From the NCBI GenBank assembly GCA_964036195.1, contig OZ038460.1:11039504-11103503 (forward strand): a stretch of DNA of 64,000 nt, in the 5' to 3' direction. Made by a program: the position numbers and the translations under genes. Source of the DNA: Sphaerolaimus hirsutus. Lineage: Eukaryota > Nematoda > Chromadorea > Monhysterida > Sphaerolaimidae. This document shows, one piece after another, positions 14,312 to 48,100 of the stretch. The notes under the pieces are model-generated. The model did not search any database. It worked only from the letters and a program-made list of their open reading frames with translations, and had not been told where the DNA came from. How positions within the stretch are numbered: the stretch's first letter is position 1; the number at the start of each line of letters is the position of its first letter.

Positions 14312-14490
14312 TAGGGTTCAAACGGGATTGACTTTTCGGGGTCGGGATCGGGATTCACTTTTTGAGATTTCGGGATCGGGATCGGGATTCACTTTTTGAG
14401 ATTTCGGGATCGGGATCGGGATTGGGGTTTCGGTATCGGGATCGGGATTGGTATTTTGAGATTCCGGGATCGGGATCGGGATTGGCCTTA
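14312..14490. repeat. Fragment of the GGGATC-word hAT-like family
   Basis: It begins TAGGGTTCAAACGGGAT like the intact copy at 45714-46297 and has about ten GGGATC(G) repeats. The right end is missing. Confidence 0.6.
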
Positions 14491-17695: not shown

Positions 17696-17998
17696 GCCCC
17701 AAGTATGCTAGTGATACCATACGTCGATCATTGCATGCAAACGATCATTGACAAACAAATTTTAGGGCGTCAACGTGAAATTGATTTGTCAGCAAACTAC
17801 TTTTGATTCAAATATGAATTGAACATCCTGCACATAATGAATTTTAGCGCAAAATTGAGTATTGAACATAAATTTTGAATAAAAAAAATGAACACCTGAG
17901 TATAATTAATTTTTCGCCGACGTATTTTGTCATTTCACCTTCTGTTTGTTATTATGCTGTAAATCGACTTTTCCTCAGCCATCTGTGCCCCGCCCGCA

Positions 17999-18131
17999 GT
18001 GACTCCGTGCGCAGCCAACGAAACGCTGTGCAACTCCGGTGGACACCGCGGCAGTTTGTGTGAATTTGAATGACGACGCATTTCAATGCAATTGCACCGA
18101 AGAACTTTACTCGGGGACCTACTGTGATATC
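17999..18131 (+). pseudogene. EGF exon, left duplicate, frameshifted
   Basis: This copy matches the intact exon at 21599-21730 and keeps the acceptor CCCGCAG and donor GTGAGT. It has one extra C near 18034 (AACTCCGG against AACTCGG), making it 133 instead of 132 bp. Including it would shift the frame within the EGF module. Confidence 0.8.
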
Positions 18132-24100: not shown

Positions 24101-27100
24101 TTAAGTGAGAAGTAACAAGTCAAAAGAAGACAAAAATATCACCATATTACCTGGAATTATCCCCCCATTGAATTGACCCCCCCCCCCCCCCGCCCCTCGA
24201 AATACTACCAGGTCTGAGCGAGCTGGGGAAATAATAGACCCCCCTCGAAAGAGCCCGTGCCATCCGACATGTAAACCCATCGCACATCTAGACCAACCGC
24301 ACATTGAATTTTGAGTCATCCGTTTCAACGGGGGGCGGGTAACCCAACCCCAAACCGCCCAGCGATATATCTATCCCTGTGGCAAATTTTTTGGGCTACT
24401 TTCCCCTTAACCCCCACCCCACCCCCCCCCCCTGATCTAGCTATCTGGAGCGATTTTGAGCAATTTTACTGTAATTTGCACCAAAAACCCAACTTTTCAT
24501 ACTTCTTATAGATTTTCACCTATTTACCAAATCATTAGGTCATGTGTTTTATTGCCTATTCTCAGCATGCCGGGTATAATTTAATGTGTTCCGTGTCAAC
24601 ATGTTCCGTGTCCCAGTCTAGATGTGGGATGGGTTTAGATGTCGGAAGCATGCCCCCCTCGAAATACCCCCCCCCCATCTGGAATAATGTACATCATGTA
24701 TGCCATGTACATGATGTATCATCAGCTAAGTGACGTATTCATGTCAAACACCTTATTAGTGTTTCCTTGTCAGTTGACATGTGTCTTTTTATCTTTGTAT
24801 GGGATTTCAATTCTCATTTGAATATTTACTTTTGTTATGACTTTTTACTCCACACTTACACAGTTCTTAAAATTACTGAACCTTTCAAAGTACCGTAAAT
24901 CTTCGAAAAAGTCCTCCCCCTCGAATACCCCCCCCCTCGAATAACTCCCCCCTGCTAGTTGACTGAGGAAAAAATAACTCCCCCTCGATTAACTCCCCCC
25001 TACGTTGTGGGTGGGAAAGTCGTATATGTATAAAAACGCGGTAAATATGTACGTGTTCATTAAAACGAATGTATTCGTTTGCAGCTGACGTTTACTAGCA
25101 TTGATTTCACTGCATAAAATTATGAATTAATGTGTGAATTTGACCCCATTTATACAAAACATTGATCATGGATTTACTTAATATTCTGACGAAAAAATAC
25201 CCCCCCCCCTTGAATAACTCCCCCCTTCGAATAAGTCCCCCCTCAAAAAATTCTGAGCAAAAAATAACTCCCCCGGGGACTTATTCGAGGATTTACGGTA
25301 GATGTATGTACCGTATTTCCTCGAAATACCCCCCCCCTCCTTGAAATACCCCCCCCCCCCCTTGTTTGACCCCCCCCCTCTCGAGACCACTATGAAACAA
25401 TCACCCCCCCCCCTCGAAATACCCCCTCCCCAAATTGAGTGTAAAGAGAACGTATATGACAAATACGGCAGTTTGTGTTCTGCGTAGTGCAGAACACACG
25501 TTAGAACAATGTCGGTGTCACGTTAGAACAGTGTACATACCATCTACATACTAATATTAGTCTACAGAACCTTATAAATGGCGGTTTTTGTTGCATTTTG
25601 CGACGTCTGCGTACGTTTCAGACGACAATTTCGTACTTGGTTTTCAAAAATTTTCTTGTGAAATAATAACCCCCCCCCCTCGAAATACCCCCCCCCCCCC
25701 TCGTTTAACCCCCCCCTCGTTTAACCCCCCCTCGTTTAACCCCCCCCTCTCGGGACCACTATGAAACAATCACCCCCCGGGGGGTATTTCGAGGAAATAC
25801 GGTATATGTAAAAAAAAACTTTTTTACCAACGCATTGCATTTTTTACCAAAAAAAATGCATTTTTTCGAAAATAAATTTTCTGTACATGTGTACTTTTCA
25901 AAAGTACGCATACACAAGGGGTACATGTACTTTTTAAAGTCTATGTAAATGTATTTACCCAGTACTCGAGTATATGTATTTTTAGTAAATGTAAACACAT
26001 TTTAACAACTGTGCACGAACACTTACTACTCCATTTGCGGAATTGGCACATGTTTCTTCATTTCAGAGATCTCACTTAATATTGGCAGCACACTGGACAA
26101 TCTTGGTATTTCTGTGGAGGTAAGATTTTTTCCTGTTCACTGGGGTTGGGAAATTGTAAAATTTCTGGTTCAGGTATCAGATTTATGTTCAACAAAATGT
26201 GTGGGCAAAACAACAATCACAGCAAAAAAATGGGTGTGTGGATGCTAACGATGGCAAACCCTCTGGAAAACAGTATTTAAATTTTTAAGTGTTTTTTGGA
26301 AATGGCTTTTCGAATTTTCGAATTTTTTAGGAAAAAAATTCGGAAATTCAAAAAGTAGTTTTTGAATTTTCAAATTTTTTGGATACTTTTCGAATTTTCA
26401 AATCTTTTTTACTGCTTTTCGAATTTTTTTGCATAAAATTATTGGATTTTCAAATTTTTAGTCTGAGTTTTCAATGTATCTTAATGTTTTACAGCATTGT
26501 ATACCGTTACCGCGGACATACATTGCATGTTCAAGTCCTGCCGCTGCAAAAAAATACATTCAAAATTGATGTTTTGAGTTTTTTGCATTTTTATTTATTT
26601 AAACCAAAAAACCTCAACAAAAAAAAAAGACTTTTTGAATTTTCGAATTTTTTGAAGAAAAAAATCGATTTTTATGTATTTTTCACTGCATGCTCAAAAA
26701 TTCGAAAAGTCCAAAAAAAATCGAAAATTTGAAAAGGTTTTCAAATTTTCGAATCTTTTTTGCCATCGTTAGTGGATGCGAGGAGCAGTGAAGCGTCGGG
26801 AAGTGTCTTCACGTCAACACTTCCCGACGCTTCACCAAGCATGCTAACGCTTCCACGCACATCACGGAAATCTGCATGAAGACAGGTCACGCTTTTTATT
26901 TACTCGCTGGCACGCAAACTAATATGTTGGCGAAGCGTGTGGAAGAGTCAGCGTTGTGAAGTGTCTTCCACATGTTTGGATATGTGTCATGAATCCGTGT
27001 ATTCAGCTGTTTTTTGTCTACACGATTCAGAGCATTTTTACCGCACTTTTTCCCTCTATCTCCACTTCACCGGCCGCTTGCCGCTGCAGTGCACTGCACT

Positions 27101-30100
27101 GGGCCCGGAGGTCCAGGTTATAACTGCGTGTGTAAATTTTAAGGAAACGTGTCCGAAGACGGTAGGTTTTTCAGAATGTGCAGTGAACCACTCGGTGGCT
27201 CACGCTGTTCCGTTTCCCGCAGCAAGCACAGCACCTACACCTAGCACAAGCAGCGCGGTAATTAGAGCAGTTGTTAATTAGCTAACTTAGGGAAAACAGT
27301 TAGTACTTAGTGCCAATACAAAAGGGGGTCCAAGTTGGGTTGAGAAGAGAGTTTATTTTTTAGGGCGATGGAAGAACAGTAGCGGCAGAGTAGAAGCAAA
27401 ATCAATTTTCGTCTAATCGAAGAATTGGGTGAAAAATAACAATTTCAGCTACTTATAAGGCAATTGAAACTACCATAATCGACAGGAATAAAAAGCTAAA
27501 AAAGGCATAATGTTACGTAGGTACATAATCACTATCAAATCACATAAGCTCTGATGCTAATACTTAGTAAAATCTTGACATATAGCTACCTATGAAAAGA
27601 GCACTAATTAAGCTAATAAAAAGGGGTGGTAACAATTAAGAACGGCTAATAACGACAATTAAAAAGGCTTCATGCGACATGGGGCTTAATGTACAATTTA
27701 CTACACCACTTAAAACAGCAATTATCTACTTCCATAATTACCTACAAATCCCTACTTAATCCAACATAATCTAGAACAGGTAACAACGCAGTGCAACACA
27801 TGTTTACAACAGGCGGAATGAACAAGGTATGGACAAAGGCAATTACGGCGTCATAAACTAATACAGGGAATCAAGCTAACAAGTAATTAGACAATTAATA
27901 CAAGCTTACAACTAATGTTAATTAATTAAGATACAAGGCGATTAATTAAGCTCGTGGAAATGAAAGACACTGGCGTGAAACAATATGTACAATGATTTCT
28001 ACATGTCACATGGAAACTCTGTGTGGGGGCTTTGTATTCATAAGTTACGGTAGCTAGCAAAATGCTCGTGGGCGCAAAATGCTTATCACCTCCAACCCCG
28101 CGACCCACTATTGTGACTATCCGGTCAGCTAGCGCCCGTGAGAAAGGTTTCAGCCCGATGGCCACACCCTTCCGAGCGCGATGGGATATTTATGCTGGGG
28201 CAGCGGAAAAGTGTTTTTTAGACTGCGACTTGTCACTTGGGGCATTATCAGAAGCTGTTCCTACCACCCACCGGTACTAGATGAAGCACAACAATCTAGT
28301 CAACATGGGGAGGAACGCGGAACAGTATTTATTTTGGTATTTTTTTGGGTGAATTCATTGTTCCTGGCTTCCGGTCGCCACCTACCTATTAGTCATCAGT
28401 CTCCGCCTCTGCCCAAAGATAAGTAAAGGGTGGAATGTGCTTTTAGACCGCCCAGAAAGTCACAACAGTGTGCCGGCAAACTCAAAGGCGGCCACACGCC
28501 GCGCCGCGGCATTTCAAAGTGAAAAATATGAAATTTCCCTCTCACCTTATGCCACGTGGAATGTAGTTACACTTAAGCTAGTCATAACTTAGCTAACTTT
28601 ACTTAAATAAATTTAGCACACAAAATAGTAATTAAAATTGGGGGATAAGGGAACGAAATTGTGCAGAGATCTACAACCACTATAAACATGGCAAACTCAG
28701 TCTGCCAGTGTAGCGGCGTCGATCTTGCGATGCAGGGCTCTGCCGGGGTACTGCGCAGCCCACTGCGTGGCCGCGCATGCCGCGCAGGCCCCGTAGCCGT
28801 CGAAAAGCCGCCAAGATGTCTGAAAAGATTTAATCGAATTTAATTAACAAAACACGTAGCAGTTTACGTTCCGTGAATTATTATTGCATTTGATTGTCTA
28901 AAATTTTGTGGGGTGGTGTTTTTCCCATCGTAAAAAACGCTCTTACAACCCACCAGCCATTGCGGTTTACCTCCTGGCTAAACTACTGAGGTGTGACCGG
29001 TGATCAGCGTTGCAGCAGAGTTCACACATTTTGGCATTCACACTTCACACGCAAGTCAACAAAAAACAAAATCACACCAAAAATATTCACACACCAATTT
29101 TTCGGTATAATGTGATCGAACCATTTTTTATCACACTATGGCACTGTGTGTTGGAATGTGTGAATTTGGATCAATTCACACACTACAGAAGGTCAATATT
29201 TAGTTGACCTCTGCACGCTAGTGCCCATCACATTACAGTGTGGGTCAAATAGCAATGTTAGAGTGTGTGTTATTTGCAGCAGCAATAATGCTATGCTAGA
29301 GCGTGTGTTTCTAACAGCAATGCAATGTAATGATAGAGCAATAATTTGGTTTTATTCAGATGGGATGTGGTATTTTTAATTGTAAAGTGTACGGTCAGTG
29401 GACTATATCTATAAAAATACTAAGTGCAAATGCAATTGTTTAAATATGTATAACTATATCTACATTGACATGAATGAAACTTAAAACACAATTTTTTTTA
29501 ATCCCACTCTTATGTTAACTAATGTACTTATATAAATACATAAACAAAAGTAGGAAATGCAATTTAATGAAACTGCAATTTCAGTTTGTATTTTCAACGT
29601 GGGCCACCCAGCCATTTGTCTTGACTGTTGTGTAACCTGAGACAACAGATGCATTCACACACTCAATATTATTCACACACGAAAAGCGTGCCGAGTTTTT
29701 CGGTGCCTTTTACTAGCACATATTCGATGTGGAGTTTTTTCGGCTGTGTAATGGTCAAAAAATTTTATCACGCTCCCAAAATCACACAATGTTTCACACA
29801 CCGAAAACGGGAGCTGCAAGCCTGCCGGTGATTATTTTTACGATCGCATGCACAAAATTTTTTGTGGACTATAAAAGTTGTTCATCTTTTCAAAATTTTC
29901 AAAAGTGGCTGTTTGCATGCAAAATGGCTTGTGTGTATTTTACAGTTGAAAATCAAGTCCCAGAGCGCGGCTGGCAATTACAAAAATGCAATAATAAACT
30001 GAGAACGGTATGGGAGTTAATCAACTGCCCTGCCTTTTGCAGTCGGGATTTTATCATGGAGTTGCCGATTGGATTTTCAAGGTATTTTTGATTTCAAAAT

Positions 30101-33100
30101 TGTTTTACTCTTTTCAAATTTACAAGAACTTATTTTTGTTCAGAAAAGTGCCAATTTTGGACGGTCAACTGGGGGCGGGTGTTACGTTTGTCAACTCGGG
30201 GGGACAGAATTTGGCCATTCGGTGCCGCAGCAAACGTCTTGGAAACTACTTGGTGTGTGATTTCGAGATACTTAGTTAATTTTTTTTGTTAATTTGTTTT
30301 TGTTAGTTAATATCACCTGACAAAAAAAACTTTCAAAAATGTCCTGAGTCTACTCAAACTCCCTCGTTTGTGCCCTCCATTGGCACATCTTCTTCCGCGG
30401 CGGCCTCAGGCTGCGTGTCGTCCATGTTTGCCGGCGCTGCCTCTGGCACGGCGATCGCCACGGGTTTGTCAGGCTCGATGTCGCCACCGGGGGCTAGCAG
30501 CGCCTCCTCCTCCGCCGCAAAGAAAGTGGCGCCTTCCCCTTCGCTGTCGGACGTGCTGGCAAGGTCCTCCACCTCATCCGTGGGGTCGTACGGCAACGGC
30601 TCGTCCGCGGGCTGGGGCTCGTGCTGCACGTTTACTGGCTCGTCCATGTTGACGTCGGGCTGGGCGAGCTCGGTGTGGACGGCTTCGTCGTCGTCGGCTT
30701 GGTGCTCGCGGATGTGGGCCTGTGGAAGCCAGTCTGGCGACCAGAGCCAAATTCTGGATCCCCAGATTTTTTCTGCGTGATACTGGTAACGACCAGCCGA
30801 ACCGAATTCATAAGAGAAGAAAATGTGGAAGAAGTCAGACCACAACAAGGTCTCCACGTTGGCCACTACGACTCTGGCACAACGCGAGTGGGAGGTGGCC
30901 ACGTTCCCACGTTCCAACTGGGCCACAAAGCCGACTCAAGTGGCCTGCTGAGAGTACTGGGTGGTCAACCTGTCGCGCGAGGGCGGCTCGCTGCTGCGCA
31001 CGCACAACACAATGGTCACCTCAGCTTCTCTCGCTTGCGCCTTGTCGGCGGTGAGCACTCGAGTCGCCCAGAACTCTCGGCCGTAGTGCTTCAGCAACGG
31101 ATCGGTTGCCAATTTGTCGATCAGCGCACGCTGCTGCACCGCATAAAAAGTGACCACCAAAATGGCATCCGCCCGGCTCAAGTCACTCCAAGGCACGCCG
31201 CTTAAGGCCACCTGTTCCACAGTGTTTAACCAACTGCACTACGATGAGCTGCTCGGGCACGTTGACGGTCGACGTGCCTTCTTTGGTCTCCAGTCCGGTG
31301 TGGTTGATCAGTGGACAGCGGGATCGGGACGTGGTCGCCCGGCACGCGCGGCAAGTTGTCATCCCTGCACGGAGACGTCTGGTGGTAGGGGCGGAGCCGG
31401 CCTTCGTAAGCCGCGTACGAGTTGGCGTTGATCAGCTGGGGGTGCCCGCGGAACACCGTTTCCAACCGCAGCAGGGGGCACATTTTGGACGCTGTAAGTC
31501 CATTGATCAGGGACGGGGAGGGGTTAAGGAAGGGTTCAACCCATCGCTGGGTCTGAACTTTTCGCGTGAGTTGCTTGCTGTCGCCGAACAGCAAGACTAA
31601 GCCGTTGTGGGGGAGCGACACAGGATTCAACGCTGTGACCATGGAGATGTTTGTGGCGTGCGACGCCTCATCTACTATCATGGCACAGTACTTGTTGTGC
31701 TTAATTCGCACATCGTGCGTCGAATCGACTGTCACGTGGATCTGACCCGGCTGTAACAAATCCAGAACGTACTTGTGCAACTTGACGGTGCCCTTGGCAT
31801 ACCTCCGGGCGGCCCGGCGCAGAACGCGGCCCCAGTCCTTGTCTTCAAGCTCCGGGTCGTCCACATTGACGCCCGTGCGGCCCACTACGACCTCATTCTC
31901 GTCGTCGTCCCATTCTTTGTCGTCGTCGTCACTGGTGACGACCAGGTGCGGCACCTGCTCCATTAGCACCTTCATCACCTGCTGGAGGGTTTGGTTGGGA
32001 CCTGCGACGATGGAGTGCACGGTCTCGTACTCAGTTTTTGCCACCCAGTACTGGGCCACTAACTCCACCCACTGTCTGTCGGCGCGCACGATCAAAAACG
32101 GGGTGTCTTGCGCGATTTTGTGCAACGCGGGCAAGTCGTCAACAGCAAGGTTGCTGTACACCTCCTGGGTCTCTAACAAGGGGCTCAACACCCTTACGGC
32201 GAACGCCGCTCTCAACTTCAAATAGTCAACGTACCCAGGCCCTTGCAGCATGTCCTTGACTTGCGCTGCGGGCAGTTCGGCCCACTGCTTGCCGCCCAGC
32301 AGCAGGCGGCGCACGGCCTCGTGCACGCCTTTGCAGCCGGTGCGTCGCATGTTCTGCACAGCGCGCCTGGCGCTCTCGTTCGTCGCCGAGTTGACGGTGC
32401 ACGTAACGATGGTGGAGTGGTATTTGGCGTTGGAAGTGATGTCGGAAGAAAGGGTAGAATTGCTATCTGGGAATGGGCGACCATTGAACTGGTTGAAGTA
32501 CAACGAGCACATGTACGCCACCTGATTCTGCACAGTGGTCTTGCCAGTGCCGAACGGGGAGTCGCACATGTGCAACAGCGGCCATGCCAACTTCAAAGCG
32601 GCGTAAATGGCCGCCAGATTTTTTACCTGGCCGCCCAGCGGCTTGAACTCGCCTGGCTTACTTATCAGCAGCGCTTCAGACGTGCCCTGACGGATTTCGT
32701 CTTCTAGGGGCTCAGCCGTGGCGCGAATGTGCGACCACTGAGTGAAAGTATCCGACAACCGGTCATCATACACTATGGCAATGGCGATCTGGTCGCCCAG
32801 TTTCAGGACATTGCCCGAGCGTATGTTGGACGGCTTCCAACCTTCGTTCAGGCGCTCAATGGCGCCTTGCATGGAACGCATGGTTCGCGCGTAGTTGGGC
32901 GACTCGTTGGTGCTGCGCACCATGTAGTCGCCATTCTCGAGCTCGGCCGGGAGCGCCGCCTGGCTCAACTTCAAATCCAAATTGCCTACAATTACAGCCC
33001 GCTCCGGACTAACCTCTAATGTGGCCACTCGCAGTTGCAATTTTGGCTGCGTCGGGTCGGGCCTGTCTGCCACCACGACCGACGTGCGGCAGTCGCGGGA

Positions 33101-36100
33101 GCTGCGCGCGATGTTGGTCGAGAAGATGAAGAAGGGGTACACATTGTCGGCGCCGTTCCACTTGTCGTTCTCGGCCAACTCGGCCAACGTGTCGTAGTGG
33201 AGTCGCACGTGGGCTTGGTAGTGCTCCCAGTCTGCTGTGTCGTGTCTCCAGTAGACGCGGTCCACACAGCCGGCGAACATCCTCTTAGCGTAGACGGGTG
33301 GCGGGGGTCGCTGGTTCTCAGCCCACTGGTGATCTACTCTGGGGGGCGGTATTGTAGCGCCCGGCTCGCCGCGCTGGGTGGTGGCTTTCATGAAGCCCGG
33401 CCCCGCGGCGCTAGCCCGCCGGCCGTTGTGCTGCCGTTTGGCGCCCATGCTCCTTCCGGCCATTTTTCACGTTTTTGAAGTTTTAAGGAAGAGCACAATT
33501 AATCACAATCAATCACTGGCACTGCAGTGGACTCTCGGAGCCCTCTAGTGTACCAGCAAATTTACAACTGCACTCACACACGCACAAACACACACAATTT
33601 AAAAATCACGAGGTTCGTCAAACTTACACGACAGGGTGTTTAAATGAATTATGGAAACACAATTAATTAGTAAATTTAATCAGTGGCTACGTCGATAGCT
33701 ACTCAAGGGCTTTACCGCAATGAGAGTCTAAGTAGGGCCGAGATTCTGCGTACATGTGGGGATGATGTTTTCAAGTGTTGGTTTACAGCGATCCGCATGC
33801 ACTACATAAATCTTATCATTAGTGTCATTATAAATAGTTACAAGCGGATGAGCGTAGCGAATGCATTCGTAGGGGCCTAAAAAGAAAGCAGCAAATTTCT
33901 TACAAGGGCCGGTCTGCTCTGTCAAGCGCGGAGTGAAAATACAGACCGCTTGGCCCGGCTTCAAATTCAAATGGCGGGCGCGGCGATTGGCGTAGTATTG
34001 CTCTTTCAATTGAGCATTCCTAAGTGCGGTGTGCGTTGCATTGCGCGCCGCCGAGAGACGCTGTGCTAGCTCGGTGGGTTCGCCGTGCTTATCTGTCGAC
34101 TCGGGTAGCATTGCGCCTGGCGCGGGTGGCGTCAACATTCTTTCCCATAGCGACACGGCTGGGCGCCCGAACAAAAGTGTGTATGGCGTGGTGCCCATTG
34201 CCGGGTGTTTTGACGTATTGTATGCGTGCACCGCGGCGCCTAAATGGTAATCCCAATCGGAATGGGTTTGGTTTACGTAATGGGACACAACTTCCATCAG
34301 AACACCGTTTCGGCGCTCCACCATTCCATTGCCTTTTGGCATATACACGAATGAGCGATGCTGAAGGGTATTGAAATACAATAACAATCTTTTGAATGAC
34401 CCTTTGACAAAGCTTGGCGCGTTATCGCTCAAAATGGCGCCGGGCGTGCTAAATATGGGAAAAATGTGTAGCAGGAATGCAAACGCTACAGTATCCTGCT
34501 GGATATCGGGTACCGGCACAGCGATACCGAATCGCGTGCACTGGTCAACAAAAACCAACACGTGTTTATGCCCGCGTCGCGTGCGTGGCAACAAGCCAAC
34601 GGCGTCGACGGCGATGACATCGCCGGGAGATCGTGCGATTTTCCGGCACGCCATCAAAGTCTGCATCAACTGCCTAAGCCCTTTTCGCGCACAACACAAA
34701 GGGCACGTGGCGACCCAATGCGCGCTTTCTGGCCGCATATTTGGGAACCACGCAAATTCCTGCAATCTTTCAAAAGTTTTCATTATTCCCAAATGTTCAG
34801 CGGTGGGGTGATTGTGTGCTAGTTCGAACACTAGTTGGCACAAAGAGGCTGGAATACACACAGGATCATACAACTTGATCCCCGATACTATTGAAGCCTC
34901 AGCCCTTTTTCGCATGATTCCATACTGATCAATAAAAAACGGTGGCACACATTGCCCAGGCGCATCTTTGCAAACTTCTATCAAATTTACTATTTACGCT
35001 TCTTGCATTTGCAGTCGCTTTAATTCAATTATGGGAACAAACGGGGGCAAAACGTGATCAGTGTGAACTTCACGCGCACTTCGGTAGCCGCGGGGCCACC
35101 AGCCATTGTTTGTGGACCTACGGTAGTGAGTCCGATAATTGGCTCCACCCCATTGTTCGCTGGCTGTCGCGTGTCCATTGTCCCGGGGTTGCGGTCACGC
35201 GCGGCAGACTCCGCCCTTGCCCGCGCGCGCGTCCTCATTGGCTCCTTTTTAGGCGCGCATCTGGAAACAGTATCCCATGGGTCAATTGCGGTCTGTGTCG
35301 CGACATTTTTGTTGTGTGACATTTTAATTAATGCAAATTGTTCAAATGCTTCATCAAGCTCTAATTTCTCATCAAAAGTTATCGGCGCGTCGCGCCTTCG
35401 GGATAGAGCGTCTGCGAGCTCATTGCACTTCCCTTTCAGGTGCTTGAATGTAATTTGATACGGGGCAATAGCCAACGCGAACTTATGCAATGCGGCGTGC
35501 GGTGTGGCTTCCAAATTAGGGTTTTTCACCCAAGGAATACTTTTTGCGTTGGTCCACACTTCAAAGGGGCGTCCCGCCAAATAACAATGCCAGTTTCGAA
35601 CGCTCTCAAAAATTGTGTAGGCTTCTAGAGTGATGGCGGGCCATCTGCTCTGAACCTCGGTCAGCTTCCGGCTGTAGAAAGCGCATGCATGCAGTCCAGA
35701 CTACTCGTCCGCGCTGCACCAACACTCCAGCGACCGCAATTTGTGACGCGTCTGTAATTACAATGAATGTTTTATTTGGGTTCGGGTATTGCAAACAGGG
35801 GCTGTGTAATAGAATTTCCTTTAATTGGAAAAAAGCTCTCAGGGCCTCAGGATTGTCATGAAGATCTACCGGCGCGTTTCCATCATAATTCTCACGCGGG
35901 CCAGTGCGTGTCAAATTTGATAGCGGCACTGCAATTTCGGCCCACCTATGGATCATGCGTCTGAAAAATCCCACTGCTCCCAAAAACCCTTTGACTTCCT
36001 TGACAGTTTTCGGGAAGGGCCATTCTGAAATAATGTTACGCTTGTCCATGGGAATGCAGATGCCCTCGCGGCCGATCATGAAGCCCAGAAATTTTACCGC

Positions 36101-39100
36101 AGTGATGCGTGCGAAAAAACATTTACGGGGACTTATTTTGAAGTTATTTTTGATCAATCGATCCAAAATTTGGCCAATATCATTTAAATGAGTTTTCCAG
36201 TCCTGACTGTAAATTAACAGGTCGTCAATATATAGTAGCACATTGCGATGAATCAATCCAGCCATGGCAAGCTCAAAACACCTTTGCGCCAAACTCGGTG
36301 AACATTTTAATCCCATAGGTAATCTCTTTAATTGAAATTGGCCAAAAATGTTGCGGAATGAGGTGATATGTCTGTCGTCAGGATGCAGTGCAATGTTGTA
36401 GAACGCCTGATTAATATCGGCACTGCTAAAAAAACTTGCAGTTGCTGAGTGCATCCACAGTGTCTTCCAGTCTTGGTAGTGGAAATTGCGGCGCATGCAA
36501 AACCAAATTTAGTCACCTGTAATCGATGACCATGCGTTTGGAACCATCAGGTTTGGAAACGACTAATGTGGGAGCGCAATATGGGCTTGTACTTGTTTCA
36601 ATAATGTCATGTTCAATTAGACAGCGCAGGTGCTTTTCTAAGTACTGTTGGTCATCCAGGCTCAGCCGATACATGCGGCACGCAATCGGTTTTCGATCAG
36701 TTAATTGCAATCGATAATCAACTAATTCGCTGTACCCTATGTCGTACTTGTGCCTTGCGAAAGCGCCTTTGTGCTTCAAAAGTACGGCCACAAGTTCTTT
36801 GCACTCACTTTCCGACAGCGTTTTGGGTACGGAAAATTCCATTTCATGTCCATCTGGACATTTCACATGCAATGGCTCACCTAATTGGTCTTCAATTACT
36901 TTTTCTGGGGCGCTCGAAGACGCTGGTTCCGCTGCCTCGTTGGCGCGACACTGTCGTACCCATTCCTCAGGGGGGTCGCCGGCCTTGACTTTCAGGACAC
37001 AATCAATGGGCTCAACCAAACCGATTTTTTGTTCCGCCTGCAAGGTAACTGGCTGATCACGAACATTTGCGACCCTAATTAGGAACACATCGTCGCTTGT
37101 CTCGTACGCTGCGGATGCGGCAACTATTCCATCTTTCAAATTTACGGATTCCAGCCCGGTGACAGTAAACGTACGGTAGCTAACTGGGGCTGATAGGCGC
37201 ACCGGTACCATTGCTTCATGCCTTGCCTTGATTTCGGTAGCCGCTGAAACTAATGCAAACATGGCACGAATCTGTTCATCAGGCTTGTGGTTATCAAATG
37301 GAATACTGACGCCTACGGATGGGATTTTTAATAGACGCGCGGGCATGTCAATTACCATGTGCCTCAACACGTCCGCGCCCAAAATTATGTTGTCAACCAG
37401 ACCGTCAATGGCTTGGAAAACGACACGAAAAGTGTGTCCCACAATCTCAATTGGCATTTCCAGTTGACCAATTATCATTAGCTTGGAATCCGCAGCGCAT
37501 CGCATGTGAGAAATGGGAGAAGTTTCTTCAACTGCGTCATGTCCGTGACGATGCTCATGAAACACATCTCTGCTGCATAGCGAACACATGGCGCCGGTGT
37601 CCAGCAGACATCTGTGATACATGATACCGTCCATGCACACAGGCACTGCAGGACTGTAATAAACATGCACGGGTCCATTTCGCCTCGCGACGACAGATTT
37701 AATATTTTCCTGCTCATCTTTCGATAGTGTAATCATTCTAACTCTCTCTACCAGTGGGCTCATGGAAATTTCAGCCATTTCAAGTTGATGATTATATTCA
37801 ATTGATGGAAACATCTGTACCGTTACCGTGTCATCTGGTGCACACTCGGACGCACCTGTTGTCGGATTTAACACAGTCAGTCGGCCATCATAGCTTTGCA
37901 TAAAGCTTTGCTTACCGGCGTCTCTGTGTCTGGTGATTAGCGGCCTTGACTCCAGCCGCAGTCGCCGGCGCGCACGCTCAATTAGCGTCGTAGCTGCCGG
38001 AGGCGCGGCGGCTAGCAGAGCTGCTAATAAATACTGACAAGTTACTACAGCGCACACCAGATAAATCCATATCTGCAGCCATGACCTCAGGGCGTCAAAA
38101 TCCCAAAATCCCACACTCACCATCGACCTTGCCATTAACCGATGCGATTGTAAACTGCCATCGACTGCATGCGCCGGCATTCCATGCACGCGCTGCACAA
38201 TCGCGTATGAATGCCACACGTCATTCAGCATGGTGGTCGGTAGCAACTCAGACAAATTGTACATTGTAGTCGCGGCAAAAATCTGATGGTGCACATCGGT
38301 AGGTCGCTCGAGCTGCCATCTATGTGGGAAACTATGGTAGTTGTAAACCGGGATATGTTCCAGAGCGCCTTTCTCAGGTAAATACTTATACCACTGCCCA
38401 TGCAATTTCAGTACACGGTTGTGGCGATTTGTGCATGTTCCCATAACCGGTTGAAACAGAAGGGCATTTGTAATTGTATTCAAATGCAAAGTCACATTCT
38501 GTCTGTGTAATTTCATTCGAATTGGGACTGTGGCGTGGTCCGCGCCTTTACCTGTTTCAGTACCCAACTGATAAGTCTTTACCGCAAAGCACTTATGCAC
38601 TAGAAATCCATCCGGCGCCGCCTTGGCCAAAATTTCATTGTTGCGCATGTACCAGCGCGCCGTTGTCGTTGGATGTTCGGTCATGGCTAGGCGAAGAAGT
38701 TCCTGGAAATGTTGCACGCGCCTACAAGTAGACACGGCCTGCGCGCGCATAGTTTGTTCAGAAGTCTCATACACTGCTTGCATCGCTGCAGCCAAGTGAC
38801 CGGTATCCACTACGCCAAATCTGGGGCGCGCTGCACAGCGCTTCTCACGCACATACCTAATTGGGGGGATTTCGAACGGTGCCACGACAATGTCCTGATC
38901 TGATTTCCATAATTTTTTACCACATGAAATGACTTCTTCTTTTGATCGGAACGACAATGCCAAAGTGTGATCACGTGCGAGCCAAATATCTTGTCTAATT
39001 AGTCCGGCTATCTCTTGCCATTTTTCATAAGGGCATTCCGCCTTTGGATTTGGTTTCCAGACTAATTGGCTGCCGTCCAGCAGGGTGCATGTGCCCTCCT

Positions 39101-42100
39101 CGTAATTACACTTTGACACTTCTCCTAATGTACTTTGCATGACCTTGGCGCTGTAGCACATGCGTACATCTCCCTTGAATAACCCACACTGCGGGGTTTT
39201 GGTAATTAGCCAACTGCAACAGTACAGCCCATGCCCCGAATAACTTACGTTTGTCGGGTATTGTGTATCCCACGCATTACTCAGCTTGTCAAGCGGCCGG
39301 AGCGCGCCGTCGTTGCACTTGTGGTACGTCATCATGCTCTCGCACTCCGAGGGATCTACTGCGCGCGGCTGCAAGTCAAAATGTTCCAAAGTGACGTCAC
39401 CCCAGAAGTTCTGGTATGTATGGGCTGACCGTGTGGCCGCTACACATCGATACGCAGTGGCACGATACTCCACCATATTGTGTTTGTAAATTGTGAGTTT
39501 CAGGGGAACAGGCTTAGTCAAAGACACAGCAGAATTGACTAATGCTGTGCAGTTAGGCAAGTCGGGATAGGTGTACAGGTTGTAGTGGTTGGTCAGGTCG
39601 CTGCACAGCAACGGCGTGTCTGGCATCGTCGAGGCCGCCGCCATGGGCACCAAGCTCAAGCACGCCATCACGACGGCGATGGTGAACACTGTAAACAGGG
39701 CGCCAAAAATTTGATTATTATATGGGGGTTCAGAATAAGCTCGCTGGCGTGGCACTGCAGACGTTTTGTCTCTGAATTCGGCCATTTTATCAACGCATGT
39801 GCTTGAAAACGTACGCGGGGACAAAATCACGGGGGGTTCATTTAGAAATGGGTCTAATGGGGCATTGCGCAAAACCCTCCACTCGATCCTAGTGAGCGTG
39901 TCATTGTGATCGTCATGCGGGCGACAATCTGGGAGCACCACACAATCTTTATCCTTCAGATCATGCATTGCAGTGCGCCACAGATAATCCAACCAACTTG
40001 TACGAAATAGGATCGATGTGGCTTCGCGGTGATATGCCCAGTGGCTAATCCATTGTTCCCGGTCTACCATAAGCGCATGCATTTTATAATGGAGGCTAGC
40101 TGCAGGTTGCTCTTCCATTTCCTCCTCTTCTTCGGGGGCTTCCGGTTCAAGCCCTTGCAGCGTCAATAATTGATCATGATGGAAGAGGATCCTAGCATAT
40201 GACGGCGATGACTCGGTCACTGCCTTGTAGGTACATTCACCCACCTGCGTTACCGTCGTTGGGTTCAACAATGGCATGCTGCTGCTCTGGCCTTGCTGTG
40301 GTTCCAACGGCCGTTGCGCCGGCTGCGGTTGCGGGCGCCATCCGATGGCCACAGGCTGCTGGCTCTGGACGTACACAGGCTGCATCATCTGCGAAGAAGG
40401 CACGGTCATAGGTTGACTTAATTGCATTGGTACCCATCCACCTGGATACCCAAAATTTTGTGGATATTGTCTTCCCTGTCCACGGCCTCGCCCTCGACCA
40501 CCACCTCTACCGCGTGCGCGAAAGTCGCCCCCGCGGCTGCGCTGATTACTATCATTGCCAGCAGATGGCTTGGGAGGGGGCCTATTTGGACACTGATAAC
40601 GAAAGTGATCAGGAGATCCGCACTCCCTACATCCATTTTCAAACCTTTTGGGCGGTAACTCACGCCTCGGGCGCGGCGCGCCCATCATTTTAGCTTCCTG
40701 GGCGTCGAGCTTTTTCTGTCGCTCGTCGAGTGCCCGTTCCTTGGCCTTGAGCTTCGCATTCTCTGCATTCTCAGCCTCCATCGACTGGACTGAGGGGTGC
40801 AGGTTCATGGCCATGATGCACTCCATGACCTGGTTTGACGTCTTGGCGACAATCTCGCTGGCCGACTTCACGTGTTCCTTCTGAACGGTTTCAAGATTTT
40901 TGTAACTTTCTTGCATGCGCGCGTTATCAACTAATTCCTTCCAACTTATATTGGCATGCACCGCCAAATTACGCCGGATGTCTTTATCCAACCCCTGGTG
41001 AAATTTAGTGATGCACATGCCTTCCCTTTGGGCAGAATGCAGCATTGGATATGCGCGTTTTACCGCACGTTCCAATCTGGTTGCCCAGTCTAGCACAGAT
41101 TCAGTAGGACTTTGGGTTGATTCAATAAATTCATGCTGCGCATGATGCTGAGCGTTCAGGTTTGCAAAAAGTTCTTCCAAACAGTCCATCATGGCTTTGT
41201 AGTCAAGCGCACGCAATTCCCGCCTTCTAGCGACAAAAATGGAATTCACATTCTTTTGCAAAAAGATAGGCAGCAACTTTTGCCTGGAGCGCATTGAAAC
41301 ACTTAGCGCATCACACAAAATATCCCACTTACGTCTCCAATCCTTGAAACTTTTGTCAGCCCTTCCAGTGAATGCATCGCACTGCGTAGCCAGGGCGGTC
41401 AGCGTAGCGGCTGTGCCGTGCAGCACCTGGTGTTGCGCCAAATAGTCTGGATCAGTAGGATTAAGTGCAGGTGATATCAATCCTGACAATCCTGGGGAAG
41501 AGGGGCCAGGCTGTCCTGCCAAATTAATTACACTGGTAGCTGGTTGAGCCGTAGCATTTGCAGCCGCAGGCGCCGTTCCACTGCCGCCCGCTGATCTGCT
41601 TACGCTTGCCGGTGGGGGCACAGCCTGCGTTGTTGTGTTCCCAGGGGTTGTTCCCGCGCCTAATGTAGCATTAGCTAACGACGCAATAGGCGTAATTAAT
41701 CCCCTATTAGAACAGAACGTCAAAAATTGGGTAGTAGCCTGCTCCAGCGCGCTAGGATTGCCTATGCTTGTGTACATACTCATACCTAGCCTAATGGCCT
41801 GTAGCTTATTTTTATCTGCTGTTGAAGCATTAATTGAAATCGCCGCGGGTCCCGCGCGAGTGAGTTCCCCAGACCACTGGTGCAATAATTGTATCATGCC
41901 CGGAAAGGTCCAACCTTCTCTGGTGTACCCTGTGGTTTCCCTGCACGGGTCCGCCACGGCCGCCGCCATCAAGATCTGGTCCGGGGTCACTTGGTTGGGC
42001 GCCGCCGCCGGGGTGGTCGTTATTGTGGTGAGCGTGCCCGGCGCGGTCGTCACGCTCGTGCCTGGGGGTGGGGTGTTAGTCATTCTACTTTGATTTATGG

Positions 42101-45100
42101 GAGACGGTCCTACGATTCTGCGCCGTGCTCTATTCGAAGAGACACCGCTTTCAATCGAGCCTTGTGCTGACACAAGCTCACGTGGTGTAGACAACGATGG
42201 AAAAAACACAGAAATTGAACACAGAAACTCATTGAGTTTCTGTGTTTTTGTTTTACACAGAAACACGGAAACTCATAAATTTTGAAAAACTCAAAACTCA
42301 AATGAGTTTTTTTTTGGAGAACACAGAAACACAGAAACACGGAAACACAGAAAAGTTTTTTTGAGTTTTTGTGTTTTTTTCAGTGAAGCGGTTGAATGCA
42401 CATTAATTCAGTTAAACTAAACAAGATAAGATGAGCATGTATAGTATGTAAATATGTAAATACATAATGTATTCATATTTTATAATGGTACAAAAAAGAA
42501 ATTCAAGATGCATGCACATCTCATGGTGGATTTGACAATTTAAGTTTCGTCATTTAAGTATACCTTATTACCTCGAATTAACCCCCCCCCCCCCTTGAAT
42601 TAACCCCCCTCAAAATGGACTGGTGAAATAATAAGCCCCCCCCTCTGGAAATAGCCCTCTCCGGGATGATGTACATCATGTATTCAATGTGCATGATGTA
42701 TTTACCTATTACTGCTAATTTGCATCGCAGCTACACATAGACTGTACTAGGTTGTGTAGCTATCTACATGTTTATTTCAAATATATCCTGTTTGTATGCA
42801 TTTATAACCTGTTTTGGGTATGTAAATGCCAACTTTTTTCTATGATCCTTACAAAACTTTCTGATGAAATAATAAACCCCCATGGGGGTATTTCGAGGTA
42901 AATAGTAGTTGTAGTTCAAATCAATTCCGTAGTCTTCCATACAGTGCACATCCATTGAAGAATTTTGGAGTACTACGTAAATTGTTGTTTTTGGGCATTT
43001 TGTTGCCGGTGTTGTGATGTTGATGTCCTCATTGTCGACATTTTTATGTACTTTTTTGACACTTGAATGAATACACAAATGTTATGTGGGGTTAAACATG
43101 TGTAAAACCAATATTTTATAAGAAAACCACTGTTTCCAGATCGAAATGCTGTAAATCGAAATTTTTGGGGGGAAAACTCAAATTTTTTGGAAAAAACTCA
43201 AGTTTTTTAGAAAAAAACTAAAAAAACTCAAGTTTTTACAAAAAAACACAGAAATAAAAACAGAGTTACTCAAGTTTTTTTCAAGAAAAAAACTCAAAAC
43301 ACAGGTATTCATTTTTGAAAAACTCAAAACACAGAAAGTGTTTTTTTTTGGAGAAATTACCCATCGTTGGGTGTAGATGAACTTCGCGGGGCACTTAATT
43401 GAAGCTCCCCCAATGAATTTTCCGCCTCTTCGAGCTATTCAGCTAACGAGGGAAATTCAATATTTATATCTGGGATCGCTACTGGGGTGTCAATTAGATT
43501 TACGGAAGTCTCACCACTTCTACGCTGGTATGCAGACGAACTCACGGGCTCGTCTTCACCAGCGTACCCTGCTGAATCAGCCTGTGATCCAGACCCTGTC
43601 GACACTGGGGAACTACCGCCGCTTTTTCCCCATGGTCGTCAAAATAAACCTCACTTACTTGATTTCCACTGCTCTCGCCCGGGTTCAGCACTTACTGGCA
43701 TGTTGGGTCGCAGGAGCGGACTATCTGGTGGGCGTTCTGCTTCTGTGCCTCCACTGGATGCTTGTCGAGCCGCCCCAGTCGGTAGCGCACCTGGCGCGCA
43801 AGCCGGCGTATCCCAACGGCTGCCGCCTGTTCCTGCATGTGCAATTCCAAATTGCAGCACTGGCCGGACGACGGGAGTGCTATCCTCTGTGCGTCTGGTC
43901 TAAGTCGCTGCTTCCTGTGCGCGCTCGGCTTCCGCTCCCTGCGCACCTGCTGCTTCAACTCTTACCTGTTCAACCTCAGCGTCCTGCGCGTTTGCAGTCT
44001 GCTGTGCCCTGTGCAAAGCCGCCTCTCGGCACGTGCGCTTCTGTAGCTGTTCTGCAGCTCTCCACACTTCCTCAACTGACCCTGGGATCGACGCTGGCCC
44101 TCCTGACCGCAGCGTTTCCACCCGGCGCGACAGATCACTTGTTGTTTATCACTTAACGGCTTGTCGTTGATCAGGCGCCGCACCGTTCACTGAAGTGAAT
44201 TAAACAAACCACTCGCGTCTGCTACCAAGTTGTCATGAATCCGTGTATTCAGCTGTTTTTTGTCTACATGATTCAGTGCGTTTTACCACACTTTTTCCCT
44301 CTATCTCCACTTCACTGGCCGCTTGCCGCTGCAGTGCACTGCACTGGGCCCGGAGGTCCAGGTTATAAATGCATGTGTAAATTTTAAGGAAACGTGTCCG
44401 AAGACGGTAGGTTTTTCAGAACGTGCAGTGAACCACTCGGTGGCTCACGCTGTTCCGTTTCCCGCAGCACGCACAGCACCTACACCTAGCACAAGCAGCG
44501 CGGTAATTAGAGCAGTTGTTCATTAGCTAACTTAGGGAAAACAGTCAAAGGCGGCCACACGCCGCGCCGCGGCATTTCAAAGTGAAAAATATGAAATTTC
44601 CCTCTCACCTTATGCCACGCGGAATGTAGTTACACTTAAGCTAGTCATAACTTAGCCAACTTTACTTAAATAGATTTAGCGCACAAAATAGTAATTAAAA
44701 TTGGGGGATAAGGGAACAAAATTGTGCAGAGCACTACAACCACTATAAACATGGCGAACTCGGTCTGCCAGTGTAGCAGCGTCGATCTTGCGATGCAGTG
44801 CTCTGCCGGGGTACTGCGCAGCCCACTGCGTGGCCGCGCATGCCGCGCAGGCCCTGTAGCCGTCGAAAAGCCGCCAAGATGTCTGAAAAGATTTAATCGA
44901 ATTTAATTAACAAAACACGTAGCAGTTTACGTTCCGTGAATTATTATTGCATTTGATTGTCTAAAATTTTGTGGGGTGGTGTTTTTCCCATCGTAAAAAA
45001 CGCTCTTACATATGCGTGAAGCACATGGTGAAGCTAAGTGAAGTGTGCAGAAGATACTTCACCCAGAATCTCGTGATGTTGTGGAAGCGTGTGGAAGCGC

Positions 45101-48100
45101 GCCGCTTCCATGGCTCTACGAGCCTATTTTTTGCTGTGAATGATGGCAAAAACACACATATTGAATGCAAAAACTCATTCAGTTTAATTCATCTACCTAA
45201 TTTTTTTACACAACAACATGGAGGATCTCAAAAATTTTGAAAAACCCAAAACTCAAATCAGTTTTATTTAGATAACACGGAAAGACATGAACACAGAAAA
45301 TACAGGAAGTTTTTTTAATAGTTTTTTTCATTATATCCTACATTATGCTGTGTTGAACTGAACAAAATAATTTTAAAACCCATTTTACATAAAATCTCGT
45401 GTTTTATTTTCGAATGACGAAATGAATTTAGTGGACATATCGTTTTAGAAAGTCGGATTGTAAGCTAACTTACCATCGCTGCCCCAACAAATTCCTCCAA
45501 GACTTACGGACTCCAAGATTCCTCCTCCTCCAGTATGTGAACTTGGCGCATGTCCAAGCAACCTTGCGTTTCATACCAAGAAGTTTGAAAGATGCAGGAT
45601 TTCTGTTTGCGCATCTGATAATGACGACAGATTGCAATTAAGTCAACACATGTGTCAACTACTTGTGGGCCACCACTGGCGACCATTTGTGGTTGCTTAA
45701 TAGCAATCAGCAGTAGGGTTCAAACGGGATTGACTTTTCGGGATCGGGATCGGGATTCACTTTTTGAGATTTCGGGATCGGGATCGGGATCGGGATTGGG
45801 GTTTCGGGATCGGGATCAGGATCGGGATTGGTTTTTTGACATTTCGGGATCGGGATCGGGATTGGCCGGGATTGGGGTCACGGGATCGGGATCGGGATTG
45901 GGATTGGCATTTTTCCGGGATCGGGATTGGGTTCTAGGAATAGAGATTTTGGCCATTTTTCTGGCATTCACAGTTGTTCATAAAGGTCTCAAAACACTGT
46001 TGGATGCCAGGAAAGTGGCATAAAATTGACGCTGGGGGTTTGCATGCACATTTTTGCATGCAAAAACGTCATTATTTAACTTTTTATAATTTCCACTAAT
46101 TTTTCCGGGATCGGGATCCCGGACTTGGGAGTTTCTCGGGATCGGGATCGGGATTTGAAAATTTTCGGGATCGGGATCGGGATTGGTATTTTTGGATTTC
46201 GGGATCGGGATCGGGATTGGGGTTTCGGGATCGGGACTGGTAAATCCCGGAATTTCACGGGATCCGGGATCGGGATCGGGATCCCGTTTGAACCCTAATC
46301 AGCAGTCATTATCAGTGGCGCAAACAGGAATCCTGTGTTTTTCAAACTCGTTGGTATGGAATGCAAGGTAACTTGGACATGAGCCATGTATGCGCACTTG
46401 TACTAAAATCCCGTAGGCCATGACTTCCAAAAAATCTGCCGAGTTTATCTGAAACATGTAGTTCAAGATTTCAGTTTTAACCATTTGAATTTGAATTGAA
46501 CTTTAGCTTGGACCCAATTCAATCGCCACTAATCAAACAGAACGCCACAATGCAGGCCTACGCAAAAGCAGGGACTGATACTGCATTGAATGCCATGACC
46601 AGTGTGTCCATCACATACCAAATAGACCTGCTCAGTAAAGAGGAAAGATTGAACATTAGCTGGGACATTGCTGAAATGGTCTCTTCGTGCAAATACAATC
46701 AGGCAGTGGCGTAGCCAGGATTTTTGAGCGGGGGGGGGGGGGGCGGATTGTTTACGGAGCCCCGCGAACGGGGGGGGCGGCGCCCCCCCCCCCTAAAATT
46801 TGACCTATGTAGATGGGGAATGGCGCCATGGCACTGGCGCCATTCGTAGGCGCCGCGCCATGGCGCCATTGGCGTTGGCATAGGCGCCACAGACCGCTGT
46901 ATATGTATGTATTTTACATATGTATACAGCGAAAATGAACATTTGAGTGCATTTTCAACGAGCTTGAGGCCGTTGCGACCTGCAAAGAGAAATAGCCTTT
47001 GGTGTTACGCTTTATTGCGCGCTTGCGCGCAAAATTTTTGAAAAAAGGCCTCAAAATCGCTGCACCAGAACACATTTCACGACATTTCTCACGTCTCACC
47101 CGGGAAGGGGGGGGGGCGGCCGCCCCCCCCGCCCCCCCCTGGCTACGCCACTGCAATCAGGCACCATGTTACATGTCTGTTTTTGTTTTGTTTTACTCAG
47201 TGTCTGAACTCTGGGCACTTTTACCCACTTTTTAGGTCTATATCATTTCAAGACTATTAAACAACCATGCTTCACACTCACAGGGACAAGAGTGACTTAT
47301 CAGTGTATTACGAAAAATCGCTGGGTACATGCATTAGATTCAATGCAAATGGATCCGAATACCCACACATGATGGCTGGACCAGGGATCAATGCAGGTTG
47401 TCAATATTTACTGTTTCAGGTTTTCTCTACAGTAGTTCTCTACAGTTTCTCTCTTTTCTTGACATTGTGTACCTCACTAAGCATGTGTGAGAAGTCCAGG
47501 GTTCAATTATCTGCTCTTACAGCATGTTAAGAGCATAGATGTTTTGGTATTTGTATTGATGTTATGGTTATATTGAATGATGGTTGCCTATGTGAGTTCA
47601 CATAAATAGCAATGGGAGTGAAAATAACTGATCACTGGGTGTGTTAGCTTATCCTGACACATTTTTTTATATTTTTTTAAAAGAGCGGACTGAAGCACAA
47701 GCGAAAATAATCACCTAAACCCCTGCTCACCTCTCTTGCAACCCTTCAAATATTTTCAAGAGAAACTTAAAAACTCATGAATGGGGCAACTTTCATGGTT
47801 AAGTTGGGTATACACTTGTAGGGCAAATCATGCCCTACAAGTGTATACCCAACTTAGCCATGAAAGTGTCCCCATTCACGAGTTTTCAAGTTTCTCTTGA
47901 AAAAATTTGAAGGGTTGCAAGAGAGGTGAGCAGGGGTTTACCGTATTACCTCGAAATACCCCCCGGGGTGATTGTTTCGTAGTGCTCACGAGAGGGAGGG
48001 GGTGTTAAACGAGGGGGGGTAATTCGAGGGTGGGTTATTATTTCACAGGCAATTTTTTGAGATTGTGATTGTTTCATAGTGGTCTCGAGAGGGGGGGTCA

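What the first reader, a model, noticed from the sequence alone, without database searches (positions are those of the whole stretch)
36513..42083. Glycoprotein-like region between nucleocapsid and protease of a Ty3-type polyprotein
The open frame has a CCHC knuckle (residue about 483), then a membrane-bounded, Cys-rich segment of about 520 residues (about 791-1358), then the protease DTGA (about 1494). In retroviruses and known env-carrying Ty3 elements the envelope gene follows pol and is made from a spliced RNA. A glycoprotein built into gag-pro, in frame and before the protease, would need a different expression and membrane-insertion strategy. The ectodomain's Cys and aromatic pattern suggests a mononegavirus/chuvirus-like origin, which is inference.
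Basis: partly seen in the sequence, partly recalled or inferred. Interest (0 to 1): 0.88.

Follow-up and report, generated by a model that had tools for sequence, protein, structure and literature searches.

The report
Retrotransposon with built-in viral glycoprotein
A Ty3-type retrotransposon, found in many copies in this genome, carries an RNA-virus-like membrane-fusion protein inside its main protein, ahead of the protease; a similar layout has been described before in planarian worms, so this is a rare variant and not a wholly new kind.

Summary
The frame 42083-36513 is on the MINUS strand of an 18-kb Ty3/Metaviridae element (LTRs 45010-44231 and 28947-26985, duplication CATA). Between the CCHC knuckle and the DTGA protease lies a 575-residue segment with two hydrophobic helices, 16 conserved ectodomain cysteines, four conserved glycosylation sequons and a furin-like REKR. 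It matches Pfam Monjiviricetes_fusion in 15 of 15 copies scanned (best E 4.4e-9; 7 of 8 scored singly pass the curated cut-off; the window copy does not). It sits in the same place in 20 of 20 other copies fetched (all found through it), in one frame with gag and protease in 6, under purifying selection (median dN/dS 0.057). Not new in principle: planarian Burro (PMC6431247) has in-frame mononegavirus-like env between gag and pol. This element lacks detectable Burro accessory domains and has an SF1/UPF1-like helicase gene after integrase. Membrane insertion of a polyprotein is inferred; a spliced env RNA is the main rival. Structure prediction was uninformative.

The parts
45011..45014 (.). 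target-site duplication CATA (5' side of the element)
   Evidence: same 4 bases at 26981-26984
44231..45010 (-). 5' LTR (TGTAAG...ATGACA), lacking about 1.18 kb that the family's LTR normally has
44212..44227 (-). candidate primer-binding site (TGGTAGCAGACGCGAG); tRNA not identified
   Evidence: inference
43961..43968 (-). splice-donor-like CAG|GTAAG in the leader (GT at 43965-43964)
   Evidence: 18 of 21 sequences; the 3 without it lack that part of the leader
42191..43370 (.). about 1.18-kb insertion in the leader, absent from 18 of 18 other copies that keep this part; short repeat of about 6-8 bp at the junction
40647..42083 (-). gag (PNMA-like capsid match at ORF residues 302-405)
   Evidence: (E 9.8e-5, 22.3 bits, cut-off 25)
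40584..40634 (-). CCHC zinc knuckle
   Evidence: (E 0.03-0.06)
39717..40646 (-). CCHC region, Gly/Arg-rich and acidic linker; conserved Met (39785-39783) 26 residues before the first helix
37992..39716 (-). Monjiviricetes-type fusion-glycoprotein segment (575 aa): first hydrophobic helix from 39707, ectodomain, second helix 38072-37998
38838..38849 (-). furin-like REKR (13 of 15 aligned copies; EKR in 15 of 15)
37647..37991 (-). Arg-rich tail and linker to protease
37167..37646 (-). retropepsin-type protease (DTGA, ILGADVL; motifs recalled, no Pfam match)
36438..37166 (-). N-terminal part of reverse transcriptase in the gag frame (stop at 36513 particular to the window copy)
36426..36437 (-). 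candidate +1 frameshift site AAG TTT TTT TAG, followed by C; RT continues in the +1 frame
35606..36425 (-). main part of reverse transcriptase in the +1 frame, start of RNase H
   Evidence: Ty3 RT 4ol8, E 2.9e-27
35029..35580 (-). probable RNase H remainder (no Pfam match)
33728..34984 (-). integrase (H2C2 and rve)
33568..33570 (-). acceptor-like CAG ahead of the helicase gene
   Evidence: by eye
30936..33463 (-). SF1/UPF1-like helicase gene, frame change near 31.2 kb
   Evidence: (AAA_12 30.4 bits, cut-off 27; AAA_11 23.0, cut-off 27)
30354..30926 (-). acidic C-terminal extension or separate ORF
26985..28947 (-). 3' LTR, near full family length
26981..26984 (.). target-site duplication CATA (3' side)

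Best explanation
It is a Ty3/Metaviridae provirus-like retrotransposon whose envelope module, a fusion glycoprotein of negative-strand RNA virus (Monjiviricetes) type, is built into the gag-protease frame between nucleocapsid and protease. Shown: anatomy, family match, same position in other copies, purifying selection, and a conserved frame change inside RT. Inferred: gag is made first in the cytosol; the first helix acts as signal or signal-anchor, the ectodomain enters the ER lumen, the second helix with its Arg-rich tail stops transfer, and protease is made back in the cytosol. Most ribosomes end at the TAG inside RT, giving Gag-Env-Protease in excess; a minority slip +1 at TTT_TAG_C and make the rest of pol. 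Signal peptidase and the element's protease free gag and pol, a furin-like enzyme cuts at REKR, and the glycoprotein sits on particles and mediates cell-to-cell transfer. The helicase gene after integrase is probably expressed from a spliced RNA.
For: Open frame of 1856 codons. Same order in 20 of 20 fetched copies, all six segments open in one frame in 6 of 20. 23 of 40 RT hits pair with a glycoprotein hit, 21 of these at 1549-1560 bases. PF24664 in 15 of 15 open copies scanned, of 21 held; 7 of 8 scored singly pass the cut-off, matched spans about equal in protein and profile (196-475 to 193-473 in the best copies). Median dN/dS: glycoprotein 0.057 and linker 0.071 (78 pairs each), gag 0.089 (78), tail-protease-RT start 0.068 (36). 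16 ectodomain Cys conserved, 4 sequons in 15 of 15, REKR in 13 of 15. Frame change at TTT_TAG_C in 17 of 18 sequences where the site was located; in the window the +1 frame then runs through RT. RT closest to Ty3 among PDB chains. Precedent for the env position in Burro.
Against: No relative found among candidates from 5.8 billion proteins, in the PDB or in viral contigs, so the viral origin rests on one Pfam profile; the window copy is below its cut-off. A second, weak Pfam name (rubber elongation factor) turns up in 12 of 15 copies (best E 0.012). The model is useless. No RNA or protein data; a leader donor and a well-placed AUG leave separate env expression open. dN/dS used only copies open in the segment, which lowers it. 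The RNA after the shift site folds no better than shuffles (z 0.76), and in other copies only some 25 bases after the site were read, so the +1 frame is shown at length in the window alone.
Confidence: 0.7

Rival explanations
1. The glycoprotein is made mainly from a spliced subgenomic RNA: the leader donor (GT at 43965) joins an acceptor just upstream of the conserved Met at 39785, which starts a signal peptide. The in-frame position is then permissive but not the main expression route.
For: CAGGTAAG in the leader in 18 of 21 sequences, all that keep that stretch. Met present in 20 of 20 sequences aligned there, AAAATGG in 19. In 12 of 21 sequences a second CAGGTAAG lies 73 nt after the glycoprotein segment.
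Against: 223 of 860 leader 9-mers are invariant anyway, so conservation of the donor is weak evidence. By eye no canonical acceptor was seen just before the Met. The frame stays open into protease and the linker is under selection, so ribosomes on full-length RNA must still pass through the segment.
Confidence: 0.3
2. The segment is spliced out or skipped to make gag-pol, acting as an in-frame intron, while unspliced RNA makes a Gag-Env form.
For: Donor-like site near the segment's end in 12 of 21 sequences; otherwise inference.
Against: That site lies after the segment, not before it; among CAGGTRAG matches none lies just before the segment, and no other pair of sites was searched for.
Confidence: 0.06
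3. The frame change inside RT is not a recoding signal but an old inherited defect or a homopolymer sequencing error, and these copies move with help from others.
For: Most sites are a run of seven T, prone to sequencing and copying errors; one copy, L021, has a run of another length. No stimulatory structure found.
Against: Kept in lineages that differ at dS about 0.4-0.5 while the flanking frames stay under selection; two copies whose runs are interrupted by another base keep the same spacing and TTT_TAG_C.
Confidence: 0.3
4. A cellular membrane protein with a chance Pfam match, not a viral glycoprotein.
For: Only one profile supports the viral origin; no sequence relatives found.
Against: 15 of 15 copies match, with E-values down to 4.4e-9 over about 280 residues; furin-like site, cysteines, sequons and two helices fit a fusion protein.
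Confidence: 0.07
5. Recent private insertion or assembly artefact in this one copy.
For: None found.
Against: 20 of 20 other copies at other sites have it in the same place.
Confidence: 0.01

Closest known systems
Burro (GYPSM1) giant Ty3/gypsy elements of dugesiid planarians (PMC6431247, section 7 read in full)
   Same: Gag with CCHC, env-like region with hits to mononegavirus fusion glycoproteins, in frame between gag and protease
   Different: Burro exceeds 30 kb, with an ORF1 of 4,873 (5,140 in another planarian) residues and parts such as MATH/TRAF, BCL2, BIR, ankyrin, SUMO-like and dUTPase-like; none detected here by Pfam. This element is 18 kb, with a helicase gene after integrase and a frame change inside RT. 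Sequences were not compared directly.
Anakin (BEL/Pao elements with chuvirus glycoprotein; PMC7642597, passages read)
   Same: LTR element that took up a chuvirus-type glycoprotein
   Different: BEL/Pao, not Ty3. The passages say that env of three other BEL/Pao elements lies after the polyprotein; I did not see Anakin's own gene order stated.
Lokiretroviruses (PMC9040795, passages read)
   Same: Env similar to mononegavirus fusion glycoproteins
   Different: Retrovirus-like with dual RNase H; env a separate gene (recalled)
TelKA elements of bdelloid rotifers (PMC5408684, abstract and passages read)
   Same: LTR element with paramyxovirus-type fusion protein
   Different: Env is ORF3, after pol
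Insect retrotransposons with viral SF1 helicase domains (PMC6338049, passages read)
   Same: SF1 helicase joined to a retroelement, in some orders to LTR elements
   Different: There of plus-RNA virus type and fused to retroelement proteins; here weak best matches are UPF1/IGHMBP2-like and it is a separate ORF
+1 frameshifting of yeast Ty1 and Ty3 (PMC5009743, passages read)
   Same: +1 shift used to make pol products in an LTR element
   Different: There near the end of gag and at sense-codon sites; here inside RT, after protease, with a stop codon in the shift site

Membership tests
Metaviridae (Ty3/gypsy) | LTRs with TG..CA and a 4-6 bp duplication | tested here: met
   4-bp CATA duplication
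Metaviridae (Ty3/gypsy) | order PR-RT-RH-IN | tested here: met
   protease by motif only, most of RNase H not matched by Pfam
Metaviridae (Ty3/gypsy) | RT closest to Ty3-type RTs | tested here: met
   best PDB match Ty3 RT 4ol8, E 2.9e-27; no tree was built
Burro-like elements | env-like glycoprotein in frame between gag and protease | tested here: met
Burro-like elements | accessory domains (MATH/TRAF, BCL2, BIR, ankyrin) and dUTPase between PR and RT | tested here: not met
   Pfam at E up to 0.1 on nine ORFs; very distant or broken domains could be missed
Burro-like elements | total length over 30 kb | tested here: not met
   element spans 26985-45010, about 18 kb
Burro-like elements | RT clade shared with Burro | not tested
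   no Burro sequence on hand
Monjiviricetes fusion glycoprotein (PF24664) | profile match above curated cut-off | tested here: met
   7 of 8 other copies (31.5-33.2 bits, cut-off 27); L021 (23.7) and the window copy (23.2) fall below
Monjiviricetes fusion glycoprotein (PF24664) | fusion-protein fold | tested here: inconclusive
   mean pLDDT 36.4; no fold search run
Monjiviricetes fusion glycoprotein (PF24664) | fusogenic activity | not testable with these tools
   needs bench work

The most novel reading that the evidence does not exclude
A lineage, independent of Burro, of elements whose Gag-Env-Protease is one polyprotein threaded through the ER membrane, with gag and protease tethered by the glycoprotein until cleavage; RT, RNase H and integrase are added only when ribosomes slip +1 at a stop codon inside the RT gene itself, and the usual env place after pol has been taken by an SF1 helicase gene.
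Probability: 0.3. Interest if true: 0.8.

Novelty: new variant of a known kind. Interest (0 to 1): 0.6.

Why it matters
Envelope capture turns retrotransposons into potential viruses. A glycoprotein inside the gag-protease frame, kept under strong selection across many copies, suggests that the arrangement works and is not a broken by-product. It makes testable how a polyprotein with cytosolic ends and a lumenal middle is made, how the ratio of structural to pol products is set when env lies between them (the TAG inside RT offers an answer), and whether glycoproteins of negative-strand RNA virus type entered this position more than once.

Tried and rejected
Homology searches that led nowhere: phmmer of the segment, of the 1856-residue frame and hmmsearch with A1 up to E 10; PDB sequence searches of the segment; viral contigs, 57 pattern matches from two peptide patterns, none confirmed. 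Single-sequence AlphaFold gave mean pLDDT 36.4; I ran no fold search on it. Troyka (abstract, introduction and start of methods read) was rejected: CG..CG ends and 3-bp duplications. I first took the 1.18 kb in the 3' LTR for an insertion; 18 of 20 other copies have it in their LTR at least in part, and the window's 5' LTR has lost it. It raised my interest score from 0.56 to 0.6 and the novel case's interest from 0.75 to 0.8; the other scores stand. A search for such a shift in print listed one review, PMC5009743, of which I read passages; they mention +1 shifts near the end of gag and none inside RT. Not answered: whether the helicase gene is in other copies, and whether 17 of 40 RT hits lack a glycoprotein; the genome machine did not answer those requests.
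Full report
What is there. The finding's coordinates are right but the coding strand is minus. An LTR element spans 45010-26985: 5' LTR 45010-44231 and 3' LTR 28947-26985, both TGTAAG...ATGACA, with CATA on both outer sides. The LTRs are 97.4% alike over 466 bp and 96.5% over 316 bp. In 18 of 20 other copies the LTR has, at least in part, a stretch of about 1.18 kb that the window's 5' LTR lacks (L024 and L040 show none); the window's leader carries a separate insertion of about 1.18 kb that 18 of 18 other copies with this part do not have.

The open frame. From Met 42083 the frame reads gag (PNMA-like match, E 9.8e-5, below cut-off), CCHC, a Gly/Arg-rich and acidic linker, a hydrophobic helix, a Cys-rich ectodomain with REKR, a second helix, an Arg-rich tail, protease (DTGA) and the start of RT. 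Pol continues in other frames: RT (best PDB match Ty3 RT, E 2.9e-27), probable RNase H, integrase. After integrase comes an SF1 helicase gene (AAA_12 30.4 bits, cut-off 27; AAA_11 23.0, below cut-off) with weak UPF1/IGHMBP2 similarity (E 0.15 and 0.04), then an acidic ORF.

What the segment is. Against Pfam the window segment matches PF24664 Monjiviricetes_fusion at E 2e-5 (23.2 bits, cut-off 27) and, weakly, rubber elongation factor (E 0.036). I aligned 15 sequences, the window and 14 of 20 other copies; the six dropped (L025, L026, L029, L030, L038, L040) have stops or frame changes inside the segment. All 15 match PF24664, best E 4.4e-9; 12 of 15 also show the weak second name, best E 0.012. 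Of eight scored singly, seven pass the cut-off and L021 does not. The matched span is about 280 residues with nearly equal length in protein and profile; I did not see the alignment itself. In the 15, 16 ectodomain cysteines are conserved (15 in all, one in 14 of 15, the window being the exception), four sequons in all, EKR in all and REKR in 13. No relatives came from the protein, PDB or viral-contig searches, and the structure model is uninformative. The link to negative-strand RNA viruses thus rests on one profile and the anatomy.

Is it part of the element? 40 copies of the glycoprotein DNA, the window included, were scored of 286 candidates, and 40 of the RT DNA of 327. I fetched the 5' portions of 20 other copies; 20 of 20 have gag-CCHC before and tail-protease after the segment, at least in part, and 6 of 20 have all six segments in one frame without stops. 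These copies were chosen by glycoprotein similarity, so they cannot show how many lack it. Of 40 RT hits, 23 have a glycoprotein hit ahead of them (21 at 1549-1560 bases, two at 1009 and 1212); the other 17 are untested because the glycoprotein list stops at 40.

Selection. Pairwise Nei-Gojobori medians of dN/dS are 0.057 for the glycoprotein (13 sequences, 78 pairs), 0.089 for gag (13, 78), 0.071 for the linker (13, 78) and 0.068 for tail-protease-RT start (9, 36). The window differs from the others at mean dS 0.415 and dN 0.028 in the glycoprotein. Only copies open in the segment were used, which biases the ratios down, but the glycoprotein is as constrained as the replication genes, which fits a module needed for spread.

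The frame change inside RT. The stop at 36513 belongs to the window copy: 12 of 12 other copies aligned there have a sense codon. In 8 of 8 copies checked the gag frame ends 30 codons further on, at AAG TTT TTT TAG C; the RT then continues one base later. A pattern search found the site in 15 other copies and the window, with seven T in 14 of 15 and in the window, and another length in L021. BLAST found it in two more, L024 and L038, where another base interrupts the run but the spacing and TTT_TAG_C are kept. So 17 of 18 sequences keep the frame change; three copies (L029, L035, L040) have no such site in the stretch fetched. Elsewhere between gag and RT most of these copies have no run of seven or more A or T. 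A stop codon behind UUU with re-pairing possible at +1 is a plausible +1 shift site (mechanism recalled; PMC5009743, passages, notes that stop-containing sites shift better than Ty3's own). RNA after it does not fold better than shuffles. In other copies only about 25 bases after the site were read, so the +1 frame is shown at length in the window alone. An inherited defect or homopolymer error remains possible.

How it probably works. The simplest reading of the open frame is a polyprotein. Gag would be cytosolic; the first helix (RQR before it, AAAS|T after it, signal-peptidase-like by recalled rules) opens the ER channel; the ectodomain is lumenal; the second helix followed by an Arg-rich stretch stops transfer; protease is cytosolic. 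Termination at the TAG inside RT would give Gag-Env-Protease in excess, and a +1 shift would give the rest of pol. This is inference. The main rival for env is a spliced RNA: the leader holds CAG|GTAAG in 18 of 21 sequences, all that keep that stretch, and a Met conserved in 20 of 20 aligned sequences (AAAATGG in 19) lies 26 residues before the first helix. But 223 of 860 leader 9-mers are invariant anyway, and by eye I saw no good acceptor before that Met. An acceptor-like CAG precedes the helicase gene (33570-33568), so the donor may serve the helicase.

What is known. Burro elements of planarians were reported to have an env region with hits to arthropod and fish mononegavirus fusion glycoproteins, in frame between gag and pol, 'the first case' (PMC6431247, section 7 read in full). 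The layout is therefore in print. My searches (listings and starts of abstracts, with passages of the papers named) showed no second in-frame case, but the library holds only open-licence papers. This element differs from Burro in size, in lacking detectable Burro accessory domains, in the helicase gene and in the frame change inside RT; whether its RT belongs with Burro was not tested, and since the host is unidentified a flatworm host is not excluded. Anakin, TelKA and Lokiretroviruses have comparable env sources in other settings (passages).

Verdict. A real, conserved and selected in-frame glycoprotein module in a Ty3-type element: a new variant of a known but rarely reported kind, with a candidate recoding site that the finding did not mention.

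Noticed in passing
window 36426-36437 (-); L022-L039 near locus position 8758 in element orientation: Frame change inside RT at AAG TTT TTT TAG C in 17 of 18 sequences where the site was located; candidate +1 programmed frameshift.
   Followed up: partly
window 30354-33463 (-): SF1/UPF1-like helicase gene with an acidic extension between integrase and the 3' LTR, in the place where env usually lies; presence in other copies could not be tested because the genome machine was busy.
   Followed up: partly
window 42191-43370: About 1.18-kb insertion in the leader of this copy with a short junction repeat, part of it 78% similar to 63293-63600 in the same window; possibly a DNA transposon.
   Followed up: partly
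window 3090-4305: LTR sequence of the same family in opposite orientation, about 83% like the 3' LTR, apparently a solo LTR.
   Followed up: no
window 17187-19648 and 20818-23247: 2.4-kb direct repeat, 97% identical, each copy with a 193-residue ORF.
   Followed up: no
L027, L029 and L031-L040, position 7283 in element orientation: A second splice-donor-like CAGGTAAG 73 nt after the glycoprotein segment in 12 of 21 sequences; absent from the window copy.
   Followed up: partly
G000 C14 near 17.658-17.663 Mb (L005, L008): Two glycoprotein copies 4.3 kb apart on the same strand, suggesting a rearranged or tandem element.
   Followed up: no
window 45713-45931 and 14311-14487: GGGATC-rich minisatellite-like repeats shared between two places of the window.
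   Followed up: no
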